Made by a program: the position numbers and the translations under genes. The notes under the pieces are model-generated. The model worked only from the letters and a program-made list of their open reading frames with translations. It searched no databases and had not been told where the DNA came from. 64,000 nt of DNA from Parafrankia discariae (GTDB taxonomy: Bacteria > Actinomycetota > Actinomycetes > Frankiales > Frankiaceae): positions 327,632-391,631 of the forward strand of contig NZ_KB891102.1 of NCBI RefSeq assembly GCF_000373365.1, read 5' to 3'. Of this stretch, positions 2,425 to 37,595 are shown piece by piece. The first letter of the stretch is position 1. Each line of letters opens with the position of its first letter.

Positions 2425-3386
2425 CAGCCGCGGTCGGCGAAGCGCGCCTCGGGCCGAAGCTCGCCGACGTTGATGCCGACCATGGCCTCACCGAGGCCGC
2501 GCGACACCTTGGCCAGCACGCCGGGGTCGTTGTACATGGTCGTGGCCTCGACGATCGCCCGGGCGCGCCGCGCCGGGTCGCCGGACTTGAAGATGCCCGA
2601 GCCGACGAACACGCCGTCCGCGCCGAGCTGCATCATCAGCGCCGCGTCCGCCGGGGTGGCGATGCCGCCGGCGGTGAACAGCACGACCGGCAACCGGCCC
2701 AGCCGGGCGACCTCGGTGACCAGCTCCACCGGCGCGCGCAGCTCCTTGGCCGCGGCGTAGAGCTCCTCGGGCGGCAGCGCCGAGAGCCGGGCGATCTCCG
2801 CGCGGATCGTGCGCATGTGCACCACGGCGTTGGAGACCTCGCCGGTGCCGGCCTCACCCTTCGAGCGGATCATCGCGGCGCCCTCGGAGAGCCGCCGCAG
2901 CGCCTCACCCAGGTTCGTGGCCCCGCAGACGAAGGGAACCGTGAAGTTCCACTTGTCGATGTGGTGGTGCGGGTCCGCCGGGGTGAGGACCTCGGACTCG
3001 TCGATGTAGTCCACACCCAGCGACTGGATGATCTGCGCCTCGACGAAGTGCCCGATCCGGGCCTTGGCCATGACCGGGATCGAGACCGCCTCGATGATCC
3101 CGGAGATCATGTCGGGGTCGCTCATCCGCGCCACGCCGCCCTGTGCCCGGATGTCCGCGGGCACCCGCTCCAGCGCCATGACCGCGACGGCGCCCGCCTC
3201 CTCGGCGATGCGGGCCTGCTCGGGGGTGACGACGTCCATGATGACGCCGCCCTTGAGCATCTCCGCCATGCCGCGCTTGACCCGGGCGGTGCCGGCGTGC
3301 CGCTCCGCGCCGTCCGCCGGCGCGACGGGGCCGGATGGCGAAGCGCCCGGGGCGGGGGCGGGGGCGGTCAGGCCGTCGGACATCAT
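2421..3386 (-). CDS. pdxS: Pyridoxal 5'-phosphate synthase lyase subunit PdxS
   Basis: PdxS condenses ribose 5-phosphate, glyceraldehyde 3-phosphate and ammonia from PdxT into pyridoxal phosphate. The 321-residue TIM barrel has the conserved start of the core ([17 protein letters not shown]), active-site D51, the Schiff-base lysines K108 ([10 protein letters not shown]) and K176 (RSKGEAGTG), and the phosphate-binding end [11 protein letters not shown]. An extra N-terminal stretch of about 30 residues rich in Ala/Pro precedes the core. Two adjacent ATGs (3386 and 3383) follow a GAAAGAGA ribosome-binding site; the first has the better spacing. The same frame stays open far upstream but the residues there are low-complexity and not PdxS-like. 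Confidence 0.97.
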
Positions 3387-29957: not shown

Positions 29958-30815
29958 ATGCGCATTCTTCTGTCCGGTGACGCCCCGATTCCTCGCGGCG
30001 GCGCGGCTCCCCAGGACGGCGCGGAGGCTGCGCGTGCCGCGGGCGATACCGACGTCCACGTCCCGGTCGGCCTCGACCTTGGCCCTGGCCTCGGCCCTGG
30101 CCCTGGCCCTGAGGCCGACGTCGACCTCGACGTCGCCTACGCGCTGCCGGAGCCGACTCCGGGCGTCCCGTACGTCCGCTCCAACTTCGTGGCGTCCGCG
30201 GACGGCGCCATCGAGCTCGACGGGCGCTCCGCGGACCTGGGCGGCCCCGCCGACCTGCGGGTGTTCCGGACGCTGCGCTGGCTCAGCGACGTGGTCCTGG
30301 TCGGCGCCGGCACCGCGCGCACCGAGGACTACGGGCCGGTCCTCGTGCCGGCCGAGCGACGGGAGCGGCGGGCCGCCGCCGGGCTCGCGCCCGTTCCCCC
30401 CGTCGCGGTCGTCAGCGGGCGGCTCGAGCTCGACCCGGACGCCCGCCTGTTCACCGCCGCCGTCCGGCCGCTGCTGCTGACCTGCACCGCCGCCCCGTCG
30501 CCGCGGCGACGGGCACTCGAGGCCGTGGCGGAGATCGTGGTGTGCGGCGACGAGACCGTCGAGCCACGCGCCGCGCTCGCCGCGCTCGCCGAACGCGGGC
30601 TGCTGCGGGTGCTGACCGAGGGCGGCCCGCGGCTGCACGCCCAGTTCGCCCGGGCCGGCCTGCTCGACGAGCTGTGTCTGACCCTCGCCCCGCTCCTCGC
30701 CGGGCCGGGGCGCCTCGGGCTGATGGGGGGCCCGGTGTGGCCGGCGCCGGTCGGCCTGCGGCTCGGCCACGTCCTGGAGGAGGACGGAGCGCTCTTCCTA
30801 CGCTACCTACGCTGA
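29958..30815 (+). CDS. Pyrimidine reductase family protein (RibD C-terminal domain)
   Basis: A 285-residue protein with an N-terminal linker containing short Gly/Pro and Asp/Val repeats (about 42-60) and a RibD-C/dihydrofolate-reductase-like domain: PYVRSNFVASADGAIELDGRSADLGGPAD, DVVLVGAGTARTEDYGP and VLTEGGPRLHAQFARAGLLDEL. RibD-C enzymes reduce the ribosyl group of a riboflavin precursor with NADPH. No deaminase domain or other rib gene is present, so the real substrate is open. ATG 29958 has no ribosome-binding site but a TACAGT box seven bases upstream, suggesting a leaderless mRNA. Confidence 0.85.
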   Translation: MRILLSGDAPIPRGGAAPQDGAEAARAAGDTDVHVPVGLDLGPGLGPGPGPEADVDLDVAYALPEPTPGVPYVRSNFVASADGAIELDGRSADLGGPADLRVFRTLRWLSDVVLVGAGTARTEDYGPVLVPAERRERRAAAGLAPVPPVAVVSGRLELDPDARLFTAAVRPLLLTCTAAPSPRRRALEAVAEIVVCGDETVEPRAALAALAERGLLRVLTEGGPRLHAQFARAGLLDELCLTLAPLLAGPGRLGLMGGPVWPAPVGLRLGHVLEEDGALFLRYLR

Positions 30816-31112: not shown

Positions 31113-31448
31113 ATGACCGGGCCGGGTGGGCCCACCGGCGAGGCCGCCCGCCCGAACCGCCAGCGCGAGGCGGTCGAGGCCGCGCTCGCGGCGGCGACCG
31201 ACGGGCGGGTCAGGCTCGCCGACGCCTTCCACCGGCTGTTCGCCGCCGCGGACGAGGGCGGCTGGCAGGGCCGCGCGGCGAGCGACTGGCGGCGCCAGGC
31301 CGAGCGGGCGCGCACGGCGACCCTCGGCGCCGTCGACGCGTTCGCCGACGCCTGCCGCCGGTCACTGGCCGGGCAGCCCGAGTGGGTGCCCGCCGATGAT
31401 CCCCGAGCCTGGCACCCCGGGCCGGCGCTGCCGGCCGGCGGCCGGTGA
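31113..31448 (+). CDS. Small WXG100-like protein, partner of the DUF6571-like gene
   Basis: A 111-residue helical protein with the motif GGWQGRAASDWRRQAE near its centre, resembling the W-x-G turn of ESX/WXG100 proteins, between two Ala-rich helices. The length is right for a WXG100 protein. The family call is tentative because only the W-x-G pattern and the helical layout support it. ATG 31113 follows a GGGCGGG stretch. Its stop overlaps the next GTG start (GTGA), so the two are probably translated together. No ESX secretion ATPase gene is in the window. Confidence 0.6.
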   Translation: MTGPGGPTGEAARPNRQREAVEAALAAATDGRVRLADAFHRLFAAADEGGWQGRAASDWRRQAERARTATLGAVDAFADACRRSLAGQPEWVPADDPRAWHPGPALPAGGR

Positions 31449-33523
31449 CCGCGCCTGGTGTCGAGCGCCGAGCCATGCCCACCCCCGCCGGCCGCGTCGT
31501 CGTCGATCCCGACGCACTGCGCAGGCTGATCACCGCGATGGCCGACCTGCGGGAGACGGCGCGGGCCCAGGCCCGGCTGCTGTCGGCCCAGGCCGACGCC
31601 ACCGGGACCGCCACCGGGACCGCCGGTGACGCGCCGGCCGGGCTGCGGGCGGCCAGCGCCTGGGCCGATCAGGGCATCACCGTGCTGCGCAGACGGCTGG
31701 CGCTCGCCGAGGCCGCCGATCCCGGGTCCGCGGGCCCGCTCCCCCCGGCCGCCCTGCGCGGTGTTCCCGACCTGTACGACACCGCCGAGCAGGCCCGGGC
31801 CGCGGGCCGCTCGCTCGCCGAGCGCCTGCTGCGCCCGGACCCCGACCGCCGGGACCGGAGCAGGCTGGCCGACCTGGCGGCGGCGCTGTCCGGGCGGACC
31901 GCGGACCCTGACTTCGTGATCGGCTTCTACGACCGGCTCGGCCCCTCCGGTCTGGCCGGTCTGCTGCACCAGGTCCTCGGGGCCGGCACGCCGGGCGACC
32001 CGCGGCCCGGCGTGGAGATCATCGGTCGCACCCTGGCGAGCTACAGCCGGCTACGCCGCCTCGACGACGCCTGGCTGGGCCGGTTCAACAGCCGGCGCCG
32101 GGACGACCAGGTCGAGACCGCGCTGCTCGGGCCGCTGCTGCGGCACGGCCGCTTCGCCTCCTCGCTGCTGGAGCGGCTCGGCGAGCTGCTCTTCGGGACG
32201 GACGACGGCTCGCTGCGGGACGTCGGCCTCCAGACCGGGCCCGGCGGCCGCGGCGCCGGGGGCTCGGGCGCCGCCCGGGAGGCGTTCGGCTCCGCGCTGC
32301 TGCGGGCGATAGCCACCGACCCCGACCTGGCGCCCGCCTTCGGCACGAGGCACCTCTCCCAGCTCCTGCACGCCTCCTGGGCGCGGAGCTCCGACGTGCC
32401 GGCCGGCCTGCGCCCGACCGGCGGCTGGCGCGCCCCGGAGCTCGAGGCGGCGCGCGCGGAGCTGGTCGCGGCGGCCGGCGGCGCGGCGGCCCGGCTGGCT
32501 CGTCCGGCCGCCGCCCGGCAGTTCGTGGCCCGGCTCGTGGACGTGGTGGCCGGCGCCGGCCCCAGCGAGGTCTCCCCGCGGATGCGAGCGGCCTACGGCG
32601 AGGTCCTGCACACCTGGCGCGAGGACCTGTACGCCGCGGTCGTCTCGCCGCTGCCACCCGATCCCACCGCGCTCGACACGCCCGGGCTCGGCCGGGAGCC
32701 CCGGCAGTGGGCCGCGCTGCTGCTGGAGAGCCTGCGCGGCGGCGCCAGCGCCCCGCTGCTCGCGGCCGACGCGGTGGCCGTCGGGGTGGACATCGACCAG
32801 CGGGCCTGGGAGCTGACCAGGGGCTACAACGGTCCCGGCGCGGCGCACTACCCGGCGAGCCCGCGGGCCCTGGCCTACCACCAGGCGAACGAGGTGACCA
32901 CGTTCTTCGGGACGGCGTTGAGTGAGACAGCCGAGCGGGTGCTGCGCGAGCACGCCACGCGTGAGGAGGAGCACCGGCGGCGCGCCGCGGTCATGATCGA
33001 CATTCTGGCCGAGGTGGCGAAGTCCATCGACTTCACCAGCCTCGTGCGGACCCTCACCAACGCCGCCCGCGGCCTGACGGTCGAGATCGTCGAGGACCGG
33101 ATCCGGCGGGCCACCGCCGACCTGCCCACCGCGGGCTCCCGGGCCGTCCTGGCCGACCTGCGTACCGGGTTGCGGGCCGTTCCCGGGTGGCAGTCCCGCT
33201 ACCGCGCCTCGGTGGCGGACCTGTGGCGGCACCGGGGCGGCGACCCGCTGCGGCCGGTCCTCGTCCAGCTCCCCGGCGGCGGCACCCGCCGCTACACCGG
33301 CGACCCGCGCGCCGACGGGTTCGTCACCGGGCCGGCGGACGACTTCACCGGCCTGGACGGCGAGCCGATGGACGTCGCCCGGATGAGCCGGGAGCAGCGG
33401 GCGGCGTACGCCGCCTGGCTGGCCAGCCCCGCGATCGTGGCGAACAACGACCGGCTGCCGGCGGTGCTGACGGCGCCACCCGCGGACGTGGTGCCCGGGT
33501 GGGCTCCCGACTGGGCCCGGTGA
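31445..33523 (+). CDS. DUF6571-like large protein
   Basis: A 692-residue, mostly helical cytoplasm-type sequence without signal peptide or membrane helix. N-terminal part: VVVDPDALRRLITAMADLRETARAQARLL, a WXG-like helical hairpin (about 20-85). Middle: FVIGFYDRLGPSGLAGLLHQVL ... LASYSRLRRLDDAWLGRF ... LLRHGRFASSLLERLGELLFG (about 157-257), a pattern seen in DUF6571 proteins of actinomycetes. C-terminal part (about 480-692) has helices and ends DDFTGLDGEPMDVARMSREQRAAYAAWLASP. Function is unknown; the pairing suggests a type VII secretion substrate or related system. A start at ATG 31475 is also possible. Confidence 0.6.
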   Translation: MTAPGVERRAMPTPAGRVVVDPDALRRLITAMADLRETARAQARLLSAQADATGTATGTAGDAPAGLRAASAWADQGITVLRRRLALAEAADPGSAGPLPPAALRGVPDLYDTAEQARAAGRSLAERLLRPDPDRRDRSRLADLAAALSGRTADPDFVIGFYDRLGPSGLAGLLHQVLGAGTPGDPRPGVEIIGRTLASYSRLRRLDDAWLGRFNSRRRDDQVETALLGPLLRHGRFASSLLERLGELLFGTDDGSLRDVGLQTGPGGRGAGGSGAAREAFGSALLRAIATDPDLAPAFGTRHLSQLLHASWARSSDVPAGLRPTGGWRAPELEAARAELVAAAGGAAARLARPAAARQFVARLVDVVAGAGPSEVSPRMRAAYGEVLHTWREDLYAAVVSPLPPDPTALDTPGLGREPRQWAALLLESLRGGASAPLLAADAVAVGVDIDQRAWELTRGYNGPGAAHYPASPRALAYHQANEVTTFFGTALSETAERVLREHATREEEHRRRAAVMIDILAEVAKSIDFTSLVRTLTNAARGLTVEIVEDRIRRATADLPTAGSRAVLADLRTGLRAVPGWQSRYRASVADLWRHRGGDPLRPVLVQLPGGGTRRYTGDPRADGFVTGPADDFTGLDGEPMDVARMSREQRAAYAAWLASPAIVANNDRLPAVLTAPPADVVPGWAPDWAR

Positions 33524-33531
33524 TGGTTCCG

Positions 33532-34776
33532 TCAGTCCGGCGGGATGCGCAGGACGTCGGCGACGTCGAACCGCACCGGCTGTTCGAGCTGGGCGTGGGT
33601 GCAGCCGGCGGGGTCACGGTCGGGCCGGAAACGGACGAACTGCGTGGTGTGCCGGAAGCGCGGTCCCTCCAGGTGGTCGTAGCGCACCTCGACGACCAGC
33701 TCGGGCCGCAGCGGGACGAACGAGAGGTCCCGGCCCCGGGCCCACCGGCTCTCCCCGGCGTCCCAGGGCGTGCGCGCCGACTGTCCCGCCGCCGGCGGCT
33801 TCCCGGCCGCGGCGCCGTCCGGCGCGGCGTCCGGCGCGCTCTGCCGGGCCCAGGGGTGGGAGTCGATCGGCACCACGAGGTGGGCCAGCTCGCGGACGAG
33901 CTCCCGCCTGCGCGCCATCGGAAAGGCCGAGGTGACGCCGACGGCCAGCAGCGGGATCTCCCGGCCCGCCGGGTCCGGGGGTTCGGCGGCTGCCGTGGTG
34001 TCCGTGATGTCCGTGGGGGCGGCGTAGAGCCCGAGCAGCAGCGACCCGACCGCCTCCGGATCGTTCTTGTGCGGCCGGTAGCCGGCCACGACGCAGTCGG
34101 CGGTGCGATCATGCTTGATCTTCACCATGGCGCGCCTGTCCGGCTCGTACACGCCGTCCGGCGGCTTGGCCACCAGCCCGTCGAGCCCGGCGCCCTCGTA
34201 ACGCTCGAACCACTGCCGGGCCACGTCGAGCTCACCGGTCGAGGGCGTGAGGTAGACCCCGCTCGGGACCCGCCGGGCCGGTGCCGGTCCGGGCGCCGCC
34301 GGCCGCGTGGGCGGGGCACCGGGCGGCACCGGTCCGGCTCGACCGGCGAGAGCGTCCTCGAGCGCCGCGCGCCGCCGGGCGAACGGCTGATCCGTGAACG
34401 CCTCGTCGCCGAGCGCCAGCAGGTCGAACGCGACGAACGAGACCGGGGTCTCCACCGCGAGCCGCGCCACCCGGCTGGCCGCCGGGTGCACCCGTTGCGA
34501 CAGCTCCTCGAAGTCCAGCCCGTCCGGGCCGACGACGACGATCTCGCCGTCGAGCACGCAGCGCTCGGGCAGCGCCACGAGCAGCGCCTCGACCAGTTCG
34601 GGAAAGTAGCGGGTCATCGGCCGGGTGTTACGCGAGGTGATCTCCAGCTCGGCTCCGTCGCGGAACACCAGGGCGCGGAAGCCGTCCCACTTCGGCTCGT
34701 ACAGCATGCCCGGGGGGATCCGCGGCGCCGCGCGGGCGAGCATCGGCTTCACCGGCGGTGTCACGGGCAGGTCCAC
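33532..34776 (-). CDS. ligC: ATP-dependent DNA ligase, LigC type
   Basis: A 414-residue adenylating ligase. The nucleotidyltransferase motif I is EPKWDGFR with the lysine at K29; motifs VLDGEIVV, FVAFDLLAL, EGLV-like GLDGLVAKPPDGVY and MVKIKH follow. The C-terminal OB domain ends in VRFDVADVLRIPPD. LigC enzymes act in base-excision or break repair beside NAD-dependent LigA. GTG 34776 has GAGGA at a 7-base spacing and yields a typical LigC start (VDLPVTPPVKPMLA); ATG 34794 is possible. A Gly/Ala/Pro insertion (about 240-260) is longer than usual. No Ku or LigD partner is nearby. Confidence 0.9.
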   Translation of the reverse strand: MDLPVTPPVKPMLARAAPRIPPGMLYEPKWDGFRALVFRDGAELEITSRNTRPMTRYFPELVEALLVALPERCVLDGEIVVVGPDGLDFEELSQRVHPAASRVARLAVETPVSFVAFDLLALGDEAFTDQPFARRRAALEDALAGRAGPVPPGAPPTRPAAPGPAPARRVPSGVYLTPSTGELDVARQWFERYEGAGLDGLVAKPPDGVYEPDRRAMVKIKHDRTADCVVAGYRPHKNDPEAVGSLLLGLYAAPTDITDTTAAAEPPDPAGREIPLLAVGVTSAFPMARRRELVRELAHLVVPIDSHPWARQSAPDAAPDGAAAGKPPAAGQSARTPWDAGESRWARGRDLSFVPLRPELVVEVRYDHLEGPRFRHTTQFVRFRPDRDPAGCTHAQLEQPVRFDVADVLRIPPD

Positions 34777-34887
34777 CCGCCGATCCTCGCGCATCGGGCC
34801 GGCGTACCGCGAGCACGGCGGGCGGACGGGCCGGCCCGCGCCGCAGTCGTCCGCCCCGGTCGGCACAGGCGGGCCGGCGCGGGCGGT

Positions 34888-35741: not shown

Positions 35742-37595
35742 GTGAGCGCCACCTCCGACACCGCCGTCGGCCCGTTCGCCCCGGATCCACCCGCCTCGGC
35801 CGGTCCGCCCGACCTCCCGGACGGTGGTGAGCGGGGCGGCGCGAACGGCGTCCGACCGCCCGCCGTCGTCACCGCCGAGCGCGCCCGCGAGCTGCGGGCC
35901 GCCTCGGTGGCCTGGCCGTCGGTGGTGCTGGACCCGCGCCAGCTCACCGATCTCGAGCTGATGCTGCTCGGCGTGTTCGGCCCGGCGCCGAGCTACCCGG
36001 GCCGGGCCCGCCAGCCCGCCGGCCCGCCGGTGCCGGGCCTGATCGTCCCCGGCGCGACCACGGCCGCGCTGGCCCCGGGCATGGACGTCGCGCTGCGCGA
36101 CCGCGAGGGCGTGATGCTCGCGGCCCTGCACCTGCTCGGCCTGGAGCCCACCGCGGACGACCCGCCGGCGCCCGCCATCACGACGGGACCGGAACCGCAG
36201 GCACGACCGGAACCGGAGCCGGAACCGGAGCCGGGAGCAGGCCCAGGCCCTGAACCGGGCCCGGTGCGGCTGGTCGGCACGGTGGAGGGCCTGGAGCTGC
36301 CCAGCCACCCGGACTACCCGCGGCTGCGGCTGACCCCGGACGAACTGCGCGCCGAGTTCGCCGCCCGGGGCTGGGCGACCGCGGGCGCGGGGGCGGCCCC
36401 GTGGGCGGTGTGGGCCGACGGCCTGCTGCACACCGCCGACGTCGGGCGGATCCGCGCGCTGACCCGGCAGGGCAAGCACTGCGTGATCCTGGCCCCGGTC
36501 GGCGGGGCGGATCCGGCCGACGCCGCGCACCACCTGCGGGTACGCTGCCTGCTCGCCGCGCTGGACGCGATCGACACCCCGCCCCGGCCGGCCGAGGCGA
36601 CGCTGGCCCGCGAGCCCGTCGCCTCGGACGCCGTGTCACGGGAGGGCTCCCGGGCGCATCCGGTCGGCCAGCCGGAGTTCGCCCACCCCGCCGCGCTCGC
36701 GCCGGAGTCCCGACAGCACCGCAGCATGCTCGTGCTGGTCCCGGTCGTCCCGTCGGAGCGGCTCGCCGCGCCCCGCGAACCGGCGATGAGCGCGACCGCC
36801 CCGGGCGGCCTGGCCGACGAGGCGGCGAGCGAGCCCGCGCTGGACGAGATCGCCGAGCTCACCGCCCTGCGGGCCCATCTCGCCGAGGTCTACGGCTGCG
36901 CCGGCAGCCTGACCGGGCCGGCGATCGGCGCGCCCGGCGCGGACGATCTCGCGGCCCTGCTCGACGCGGGCGCGCCGCCGCCGGCCGAACTCACCCCGCC
37001 GGGGGTGGCGGCCGAGCTGACCCGCGCGGTTCCCCCGCGCCACCAACGCGGCCTGACGATCCTGTTCACCGGGCTGTCCGGCTCGGGCAAGTCGACCCTG
37101 GCGGGCCTGCTGGTGTGCCGGCTGCTCGAACGCGGCCGGCGGGTCACCCTGCTCGACGGAGACATCGTGCGGACACATCTCTCTCAGGGCCTGGGCTTCT
37201 CCCGCGCCGACCGGGACACGAACGTGCGCCGCATCGGCTTCGTCGCCGCGCAGGTCGCGGGCGCCGGCGGGATCGCCGTGTGCGCGCCGATCGCGCCCTA
37301 CGACGACGTCCGCGCCCAGGTGCGGGCGATGACCGTCGCACGCGGTGGCGGTTTCGTGCTCGTGTACGTGTCGACCCCGCTGGAGGTGTGCGAGGCACGG
37401 GACCGCAAGGGCCTCTACGCCAAGGCCCGGGCGGGGGTGATCCCCGCCTTCACCGGCGTCTCCGACCCGTACGAGGAGCCGGCCGACGCCGACGTGGTGG
37501 TCGACACCGCGGGTCTGCCGACCGGGCAGGCCGTCGACCGGGTGCTCACGCACCTGGTCGAGGCCGGCTGGGTCGAGGGCCCCCACGGTCAGTAG
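35742..37595 (+). CDS. cysC: Adenylyl-sulfate kinase CysC with degenerate ATP-sulfurylase-like N-terminal region
   Basis: The C-terminal 190 residues form a complete APS kinase: P-loop GLSGSGKST (444-452), DGDIVRTHLSQGLGFSRADRDTNVRR region and KGLYAKAR. The first 420 residues resemble a sulfate adenylyltransferase (LDPRQLTDLELMLLGVFGP; later AAHHLRVRCLLAAL and LRAHLAEVYGC), and the junction VPPRHQRGLTILF is like that of natural sulfurylase-kinase fusions. The sulfurylase catalytic motifs (QxRNPxHxxH and GRDHAGP) are not present, so this part is probably structural or regulatory. A Glu/Pro repeat lies near residue 155. The GTG start has a TACCGT box seven bases upstream and no ribosome-binding site. 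Confidence 0.87.
   Translation: MSATSDTAVGPFAPDPPASAGPPDLPDGGERGGANGVRPPAVVTAERARELRAASVAWPSVVLDPRQLTDLELMLLGVFGPAPSYPGRARQPAGPPVPGLIVPGATTAALAPGMDVALRDREGVMLAALHLLGLEPTADDPPAPAITTGPEPQARPEPEPEPEPGAGPGPEPGPVRLVGTVEGLELPSHPDYPRLRLTPDELRAEFAARGWATAGAGAAPWAVWADGLLHTADVGRIRALTRQGKHCVILAPVGGADPADAAHHLRVRCLLAALDAIDTPPRPAEATLAREPVASDAVSREGSRAHPVGQPEFAHPAALAPESRQHRSMLVLVPVVPSERLAAPREPAMSATAPGGLADEAASEPALDEIAELTALRAHLAEVYGCAGSLTGPAIGAPGADDLAALLDAGAPPPAELTPPGVAAELTRAVPPRHQRGLTILFTGLSGSGKSTLAGLLVCRLLERGRRVTLLDGDIVRTHLSQGLGFSRADRDTNVRRIGFVAAQVAGAGGIAVCAPIAPYDDVRAQVRAMTVARGGGFVLVYVSTPLEVCEARDRKGLYAKARAGVIPAFTGVSDPYEEPADADVVVDTAGLPTGQAVDRVLTHLVEAGWVEGPHGQ

What the first reader, a model, noticed from the sequence alone, without database searches (positions are those of the whole stretch)
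31113..33523. A coupled WXG100-like/DUF6571-like gene pair of unknown function
A 111-residue helical protein with a W-Q-G turn is translationally coupled (GTGA) to a 692-residue protein that itself begins with a WXG-like hairpin and has a DUF6571-like centre. The pair stands alone, without ESX secretion components or a recognisable immunity gene. It is the best candidate in the window for an undescribed system.
Basis: inference. Interest (0 to 1): 0.6.

Follow-up and report, generated by a model that had tools for sequence, protein, structure and literature searches.

The report
Likely secreted protein and its partner
Two neighbouring genes in a Frankia-type soil bacterium most likely make a protein that is exported with the help of a small partner protein; distant relatives of the pair elsewhere sit beside a secretion motor or carry toxin ends, which this one seems to lack.

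Summary
The two ORFs are real and conserved: ORF2 has the same upstream neighbour in 16 of 16 relatives' loci, and a W-x-G ORF precedes it in 15 of 16. The GTGA overlap is probably a wrong start; orthologues point to ATG 31475 (682 aa, 26-bp gap). ORF1 is predicted as a helical hairpin with W-Q-G in the turn; ORF2 begins with a similar hairpin. Neither passes a Pfam cut-off. Profile comparison links ORF2 to DUF6571 (98.4%) and ORF1 to the small protein encoded upstream of DUF6571 genes (97.0%). So the pair is a divergent form of a recurring two-gene unit. In two other families, full-length effectors lie near an EssC-like ATPase (11 of 13), mid-length ones, which include the toxin-bearing forms, do not (0 of 18). 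ORF2 is full-length, its C-terminus is its most conserved part, and no immunity gene was seen. The host has an EssC-like ATPase beside two small W-x-G proteins elsewhere. Best reading: a partner plus a non-toxic substrate of an EssC-type (type VII-like) machine. Complex formation and export are inferred.

The parts
31113..31448 (+). ORF1, 111 aa, WXG100-like helical hairpin; proposed targeting partner of ORF2
31263..31271 (+). W51-Q52-G53 codons, in the turn between the predicted helices 16-48 and 54-86
31475..33523 (+). ORF2, 682 aa from the start that orthologues support (ATG)
31445..31447 (+).
   Evidence: frame closed upstream in L039/L075
31496..31756 (+). ORF2 N-terminal part (residues 8-94): strand, helix 12-43, helix 52-80, strand; layout as in ORF1, but the second strand lies in a stretch of pLDDT under 50
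   Evidence: N-terminal profiles A1N and A3N match at 96.2%
31499..32662 (+). Part of ORF2 homologous to DUF6571 proteins (residues 9-396)
31772..33169 (+). Nearly all-helical, solenoid-like part (residues 100-565); no confident match to a solved fold
33170..33469 (+). C-terminal region (residues 566-665), most conserved part in the family (mean pairwise identity 0.62)
29958..30815 (+). Upstream neighbour with a RibD C-terminal domain; the same neighbour in 16 of 16 relatives' loci
33532..34866 (-). Convergent downstream neighbour with an ATP-dependent DNA ligase domain; the same neighbour in 12 of 16 relatives' loci

Best explanation
ORF1-ORF2 is a divergent, non-toxic form of an actinobacterial two-gene unit made of a WXG100-like small protein and a DUF6571-type large protein. 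ORF1 folds as a helical hairpin and packs against the similar N-terminal hairpin of ORF2. The combined helical bundle is the address tag that brings ORF2 to an EssC-like FtsK/SpoIIIE ATPase encoded elsewhere in the genome, and ORF2 is exported, with or without ORF1. Outside the cell or at its surface, the helical body and fixed C-terminus of ORF2 do a conserved, non-polymorphic job, more like a core or structural substrate than a toxin. Shown here by computation: conservation, synteny, co-occurrence, predicted folds, homology by profile, linkage of relatives to the ATPase, the reversed conservation pattern compared with toxin-type relatives, presence of the ATPase in the host. Inferred: complex formation, recognition by this ATPase, export, and the job of ORF2.
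For: Profile homology of both proteins to the DUF6571 unit (controls; N-terminal part). ORF1 model pLDDT 86.6; the 25 best Foldseek chains in PDB, from 10 entries, are all Esx/WXG100 proteins. ORF2 begins with a hairpin of similar layout. A partner lies upstream of the effector in 80 of 115 listed hits that reach the N-terminus, 16 of 16 in the window's family (with one overlooked hit added). In 28 genomes with the unit, 20 of 25 ATPase hits of the EssC-like kind in two families have a partner gene within 10 kb, against roughly 0.012 expected each. Full-length effectors 11 of 13 within 15 kb of that ATPase (7 of 9 without the four that are rows of the search profile), mid-length ones 0 of 18. 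The host ATPase scores higher with the EssC model (453.6 bits) than with EccCa (382.8) and falls in a clade (98/97) with rows from all four genera that carry the pair, apart from ESX-4 EccC (100/100). Canonical EccCa passes its cut-off in only 5 of the 11 pair-bearing genomes.
Against: In the window's family the pair is not next to the ATPase, and the ATPase also occurs in family members where no pair was found (G006, G008), so the link is by analogy. All EssC-like hits in the family are below that model's cut-off. In the tree the sampled ATPases of two pair-bearing genomes (G014, G023) fall in another clade, and the order of clades inside the EssC-like group is unresolved. In a third family (f17) 0 of 6 ATPases lie near a partner. 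No Y-x-x-x-D/E motif in 15 of 15 ORF1 homologues and 8 of 8 partners. ORF1 matches WXG100 neither by Pfam cut-off nor by profile comparison (0.7% to 14.8%, with two faulty rows of ten); its best Pfam hit is DUF2379 at E 0.0038, below cut-off. A second aligner ties Esx proteins with unrelated hairpins. The C-terminal part of ORF2 is not shown to be homologous to DUF6571 proteins (0.4%).
Confidence: 0.58

Rival explanations
1. ORF2 is an antibacterial toxin of the same export route, with an unrecognised C-terminal toxic domain.
For: Two relatives of the unit carry an ADP-ribosyltransferase or a nuclease end; the N-terminal part is of the same type.
Against: The C-terminus is the most conserved region in the family (0.62 against 0.36-0.48 elsewhere), while in five relatives with variable ends the last part is the least conserved (0.23-0.35 against 0.57-0.78; a final block of 1.0 rests on few letters). 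No gene stands between ORF2 and the convergent ligase, and my gene caller (60 aa or more) shows no extra gene directly behind ORF2 in the relatives' loci. One locus per genome.
Confidence: 0.12
2. The pair is exported by the canonical ESX-4 system, not by the EssC-like ATPase.
For: ESX-4 is listed for Frankia alni ACN14a (PMC4791881, passages), and EccCa passes its cut-off in five pair-bearing relatives.
Against: The window genome and five other pair-bearing genomes have no EccCa over the cut-off. Elsewhere, partners lie near 0 of 3 canonical EccCa and near 20 of 25 EssC-like ATPases. The window's assembly has 194 contigs, so an absence is not certain.
Confidence: 0.13
3. ORF1 and ORF2 form an intracellular complex that is no longer exported: a domesticated derivative with a cytosolic or envelope-linked role.
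For: Vertical inheritance among metabolic genes and no linkage to the ATPase; no Y-x-x-x-D/E motif.
Against: W-x-G turn, hairpin fold and pairing are all kept. Other members of the unit also lie away from the ATPase.
Confidence: 0.17

Closest known systems
DUF6571 (Pfam PF20211) proteins with their upstream small partner in other actinomycetes
   Same: Gene order and strand, N-terminal hairpin region, 379 aligned columns, small partner with an invariant Trp
   Different: Below every Pfam cut-off; W-x-G where most sampled partners have W-x-S or W-x-C/T; not beside an ATPase; C-terminal region of its own
WXG100 proteins (EsxA/EsxB)
   Same: About 100 aa, helical hairpin, W-x-G in the turn, best Foldseek matches
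   Different: Below Pfam cut-off, short strands before and after the hairpin, tail with a conserved P-R-A, no Y-x-x-x-D/E
Lap1/Lap2 targeting factors with LXG effectors (T7SSb; PMC9600955, passages)
   Same: Small WXG100-like protein encoded beside an effector with a helical N-terminus; address complex for an EssC ATPase
   Different: No DUF3130, DUF3958 or LXG hit; one small partner, not two; no conserved C-terminal FxxxD; no variable toxin end
Toxin-bearing DUF6571 proteins (L072, L073)
   Same: Same kind of partner and N-terminal region
   Different: C-terminal ADP-ribosyltransferase or nuclease domain; ORF2 has a fixed C-terminus

Membership tests
DUF6571 (PF20211) | Score over the Pfam gathering cut-off | tested here: not met
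   No hit at E 5 for window ORF2; 0 of 15 sequences of A1 at E 0.1; none in own genome
DUF6571 (PF20211) | Distant homology by profile-profile comparison | tested here: met
   98.4%, E 5.8e-15 over 379 columns with 15 of the 20 fetched DUF6571 loci, controls
WXG100 (PF06013) | Score over the Pfam cut-off | tested here: not met
   No WXG100 hit for ORF1 at E 5; 1 of 15 sequences of A2 at E 0.071
WXG100 (PF06013) | W-x-G in the turn of a helical hairpin of about 100 aa | tested here: met
   Foldseek's top 25 chains all Esx, but E 0.37 or worse
Type VII (T7SSa) substrate | C-terminal Y-x-x-x-D/E export motif on one member of the pair | tested here: inconclusive
   Absent from 15 of 15 ORF1 sequences and 8 of 8 partners; not tested in ORF2
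LXG effector with Lap partners | LXG, DUF3130 or DUF3958 domain by Pfam | tested here: not met
   No such hit
Polymorphic toxin system | Variable C-terminal toxin domain | tested here: not met
   C-terminus is the most conserved region in 17 aligned sequences
Polymorphic toxin system | Immunity gene next to the toxin gene | tested here: not met
   8 bp to a convergent ligase gene; genes of 60 aa or more only were called in relatives
Type VII secretion substrate | Genetic linkage to an FtsK/SpoIIIE ATPase | tested here: not met
   Not seen within the about 16-19 kb loci of the window's family; linked for relatives in two other families
Type VII secretion substrate | Export depends on the ATPase | not testable with these tools
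   Needs a secretion assay

The most novel reading that the evidence does not exclude
The full-length DUF6571-type protein with its WXG100-like partner is a core, fixed substrate of an EssC-type secretion machine in actinomycetes, distinct from ESX. The toxin-bearing forms are offshoots that reuse the same address tag. The Frankia family keeps the core substrate and its ATPase in separate places of the chromosome.
Probability: 0.35. Interest if true: 0.72.

Novelty: new variant of a known kind. Interest (0 to 1): 0.5.

Why it matters
It ties a Pfam family of unknown function, named in 0 papers of the open-licence library searched, to a probable secretion route. It gives a simple two-class picture (full-length near the ATPase, mid-length away from it) and testable predictions on a T7SSb-like pathway in actinomycetes, including plant symbionts.

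Tried and rejected
Pfam, NCBIfam and PADLOC scans of the two proteins gave nothing over a cut-off; below cut-off ORF1 hit DUF2379 (E 0.0038), EspA_EspE (0.094) and DUF6092 (0.19), and single homologues hit PPE (0.028) and WXG100 (0.071). Solved structures by sequence: none for ORF2 at E 1; for the partner profile 6 at E 0.002-0.75, the best named sc-apCC-4, one named ESAT-6-like, and two streptococcal proteins that I recall as WXG100. Fold search of ORF2: no Foldseek match at E 0.001; importin and armadillo proteins at Z up to 9.1, which the tool calls common for helical models. Sequence-level link of ORF1 to WXG100: not found. C-terminal part of ORF2 against DUF6571 proteins: not found. Polymorphic toxin reading: disfavoured. 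'DUF6571' in 0 papers.

Faults in my own steps. In one search the frames printed for loci with the match on the minus strand were on the wrong strand; alignment A3 used gene calls on the right strand, for 15 of the 20 loci (L062-L066 left out). The WXG100 profile had rows from wrong strands; one search mended most, but two of ten rows (L103, L104) stay wrong. It has no partner listed, which makes 80 of 115, with 25 without a partner and 10 with one downstream only; it would make the short class 22 of 47. The list was itself cut. The block-shuffle control for ORF1 is weak (3 of 60 reach the observed score; the alignment has only four blocks). The EssC model also picks up ESX-4 ATPases (the only hit of G011 is the place that scores as EccCa), so 28 of 29 is an upper bound. 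The 20 ATPase regions for the tree were of my choosing. Gene calls come from my own simple codon-composition caller.

Full report
What is there. ORF1 (31113-31448, 111 aa) and ORF2 (open frame ending at 33523) lie on the + strand between a gene with a RibD C-terminal domain and a convergent gene with an ATP-dependent DNA ligase domain. Named relatives of the locus are Parafrankia soli (86% in the best segment), Parafrankia sp. EUN1f, P. colletiae, Frankia sp. EI5c and other Frankia and Pseudofrankia strains (19 loci). That the host is a Parafrankia, and that 'family f1' of the genome tool is Frankiaceae, are inferred from this.

Start of ORF2. The GTGA overlap is in the sequence but is not supported. 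In the closest relative the stop codon of ORF1 itself closes the ORF2 frame, and in the five same-genus relatives and the four readable g6 loci a start codon lies 4-6 codons before the RVVxD-type motif, which corresponds to ATG 31475. ORF2 is then 682 aa with a 26-bp gap.

Conservation and synteny. ORF2 relatives were found in 17 of 40 genomes, the window's own counted: 6 of 6 of its genus, 5 of 5 in each of two other genera, 1 of 5 in a fourth, all in the window's family. The ORF1 search found 11 of 40. Reading the DNA upstream of ORF2 showed a W-x-G ORF also in five loci that this search missed; so 15 of 16 relatives' loci have it, and the sixteenth (L053) has unread bases there. The RibD-type gene is upstream in 16 of 16 relatives' loci; downstream comes the ligase gene in 12 and a gene that I recognise by eye as cysN-like in 4. 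The pair is thus inherited vertically. dN/dS is 0.27 and 0.375 against P. soli, 0.585 and 0.46 against P. colletiae (ORF1, ORF2).

Folds. ORF1: mean pLDDT 86.6, helices 16-48 and 54-86 with W51-Q52-G53 in the turn. Foldseek's 25 best PDB chains, from 10 entries, are all Esx/WXG100 proteins, with E from 0.37 up. A second aligner ties these with unrelated hairpins, so the fold is WXG100-like but not diagnostic by itself. ORF2: mean pLDDT 75.6; strand, helices 12-43 and 52-80, strand, a layout like that of ORF1 although the second strand is in a stretch of pLDDT under 50; then a nearly all-helical body with weak solenoid-like matches only. No membrane segment stands out (highest 19-residue hydropathy 0.57 and 1.33).

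Homology. No Pfam or NCBIfam model passes its cut-off for either protein. ORF1's best Pfam hit is DUF2379 at E 0.0038, below cut-off. Profile comparison of 15 ORF2 sequences with 15 DUF6571 proteins gives 98.4%, E 5.8e-15 over 379 columns; of 15 ORF1 sequences with 8 proteins encoded upstream of DUF6571 genes, 97.0%, E 9.4e-11. Reversed profiles give 0.1% and 0.5%; 0 of 60 column shuffles reach either score; block shuffles reach it in 0 of 60 and 3 of 60. The N-terminal parts alone match at 96.2%. The C-terminal part does not match (0.4%). A WXG100 profile does not reach ORF1 or its relatives (0.7% to 14.8%).

The unit elsewhere. The DUF6571 model rings in 34 of 246 genomes of a class sample and in none of the window's family listed there. 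With joint profiles, which include the window's family, the partner rings in 54 of 246 and the effector in 65 of 246. In the window's family it is 16 of 16; 43 of 47 genomes have at least one such pair. Two relatives have toxin domains: an ADP-ribosyltransferase (L072, E 9.4e-17) and a nuclease (L073, E 1.7e-11).

Link to a secretion ATPase. In 28 genomes with the unit, 20 of 25 hits of the EssC-like kind in two families have a partner gene within 10 kb, roughly 0.012 expected each; canonical EccCa 0 of 3; ATPases of a third family 0 of 6. In those two families, effectors matched to position 600 or beyond lie within 15 kb of the ATPase in 11 of 13 cases, mid-length matches in 0 of 18, short ones in 22 of 46. 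Four of the 13 were rows of the search profile; without them it is 7 of 9. Five of the 18 mid-length proteins were read: two have a Pfam toxin domain, the other three have C-termini unlike each other or without a Pfam hit. ORF2 matches over the full length (1-652 of 653), but is itself a row of that profile.

Machinery in the host. The window genome has one hit of the EssC model (G000:C130), followed by two small proteins with W-E-G and W-D-G (WXG100 model E 0.0015 and 0.0064, below cut-off). The ATPase scores 453.6 bits with the EssC model and 382.8 with EccCa, both below cut-off. In a tree of 32 ATPases of my choosing, ESX-4 members split off at 100/100. The host's lies in a clade of nine rows (98/97) from the four genera with the pair; the unit-linked ATPases form another clade (97/100, with one unlinked row). 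Sampled ATPases of two pair-bearing genomes (G014, G023) lie elsewhere, the order of the clades is open, and several branches are long. The EssC model rings in 28 of 29 genomes of the family, an upper bound since it also takes ESX-4 ATPases, and also where no pair was found. EccCa passes its cut-off in 5 of 11 pair-bearing genomes, not in the window's. A paper lists one ESX-4 cluster for Frankia alni ACN14a (PMC4791881, passages).

Toxin or not. Mean pairwise identity in 17 sequences is 0.39 for residues 1-85, 0.36 for 86-125, 0.45-0.48 for 126-565 and 0.62 for 566-665. In five relatives with variable ends it is 0.57-0.78 over the first 480 columns and 0.23-0.35 over the next 240; a last block of 1.0 rests on few letters. 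With no immunity gene seen and one locus per genome, a toxin role is unlikely.

Mechanism. The closest worked case is the Lap/LXG pair of Bacillota, where small WXG100-like factors bind the LXG domain and promote export (PMC9600955, passages). EsaD with its small partners is another (PMC10653861, abstract and outline). By analogy, ORF1 and the ORF2 hairpin form the address for the EssC-like ATPase. This step and export itself are inferred.

Standing. DUF6571 is a known family of unknown function; its name is in 0 papers of the library. A wide survey of toxin systems (PMC3482391, 12 of 68 passages shown) lists WXG, LXG and LDXD export tags for T7SS toxins; I did not see this unit in those passages and did not read the whole text. 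Other searches on type VII secretion with Frankia, Streptomyces or Actinobacteria were seen as listings. I rate the pair as a new variant of a known kind.

Noticed in passing
L072:1141-3096, L073:784-2772: DUF6571 N-terminal parts joined to an ADP-ribosyltransferase (PF03496) and a DNA/RNA non-specific endonuclease (PF13930) end in unnamed actinomycetes, each with a WXG-like partner gene upstream: toxin forms of the unit.
   Followed up: partly
L073:37-471 and 2789-3208: Two small proteins that look alike by eye flank the nuclease-type pair and might be immunity candidates; no Pfam hit.
   Followed up: partly
L112:11005-16214: EssC-like ATPase gene with a possible FHA-like N-terminus followed by two small W-x-G proteins (74 and 95 aa) in the window's own genome; same order in L114. 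A possible minimal secretion locus.
   Followed up: partly
L121:10743-11141: The gene after a DUF6571-type pair encodes a DUF6188 protein (E 3.9e-28), a candidate immunity protein by position only.
   Followed up: no
L119:14099-15601, L122:7364-8904: A second partner-like small protein (G-A-W-V-S) is encoded before a different, Gly-rich protein near the EssC-like ATPase, so such partners may serve other cargo too.
   Followed up: no
window 35742-37595: Protein with an APS kinase domain and a weak, partial ATP-sulfurylase match in front of it.
   Followed up: no
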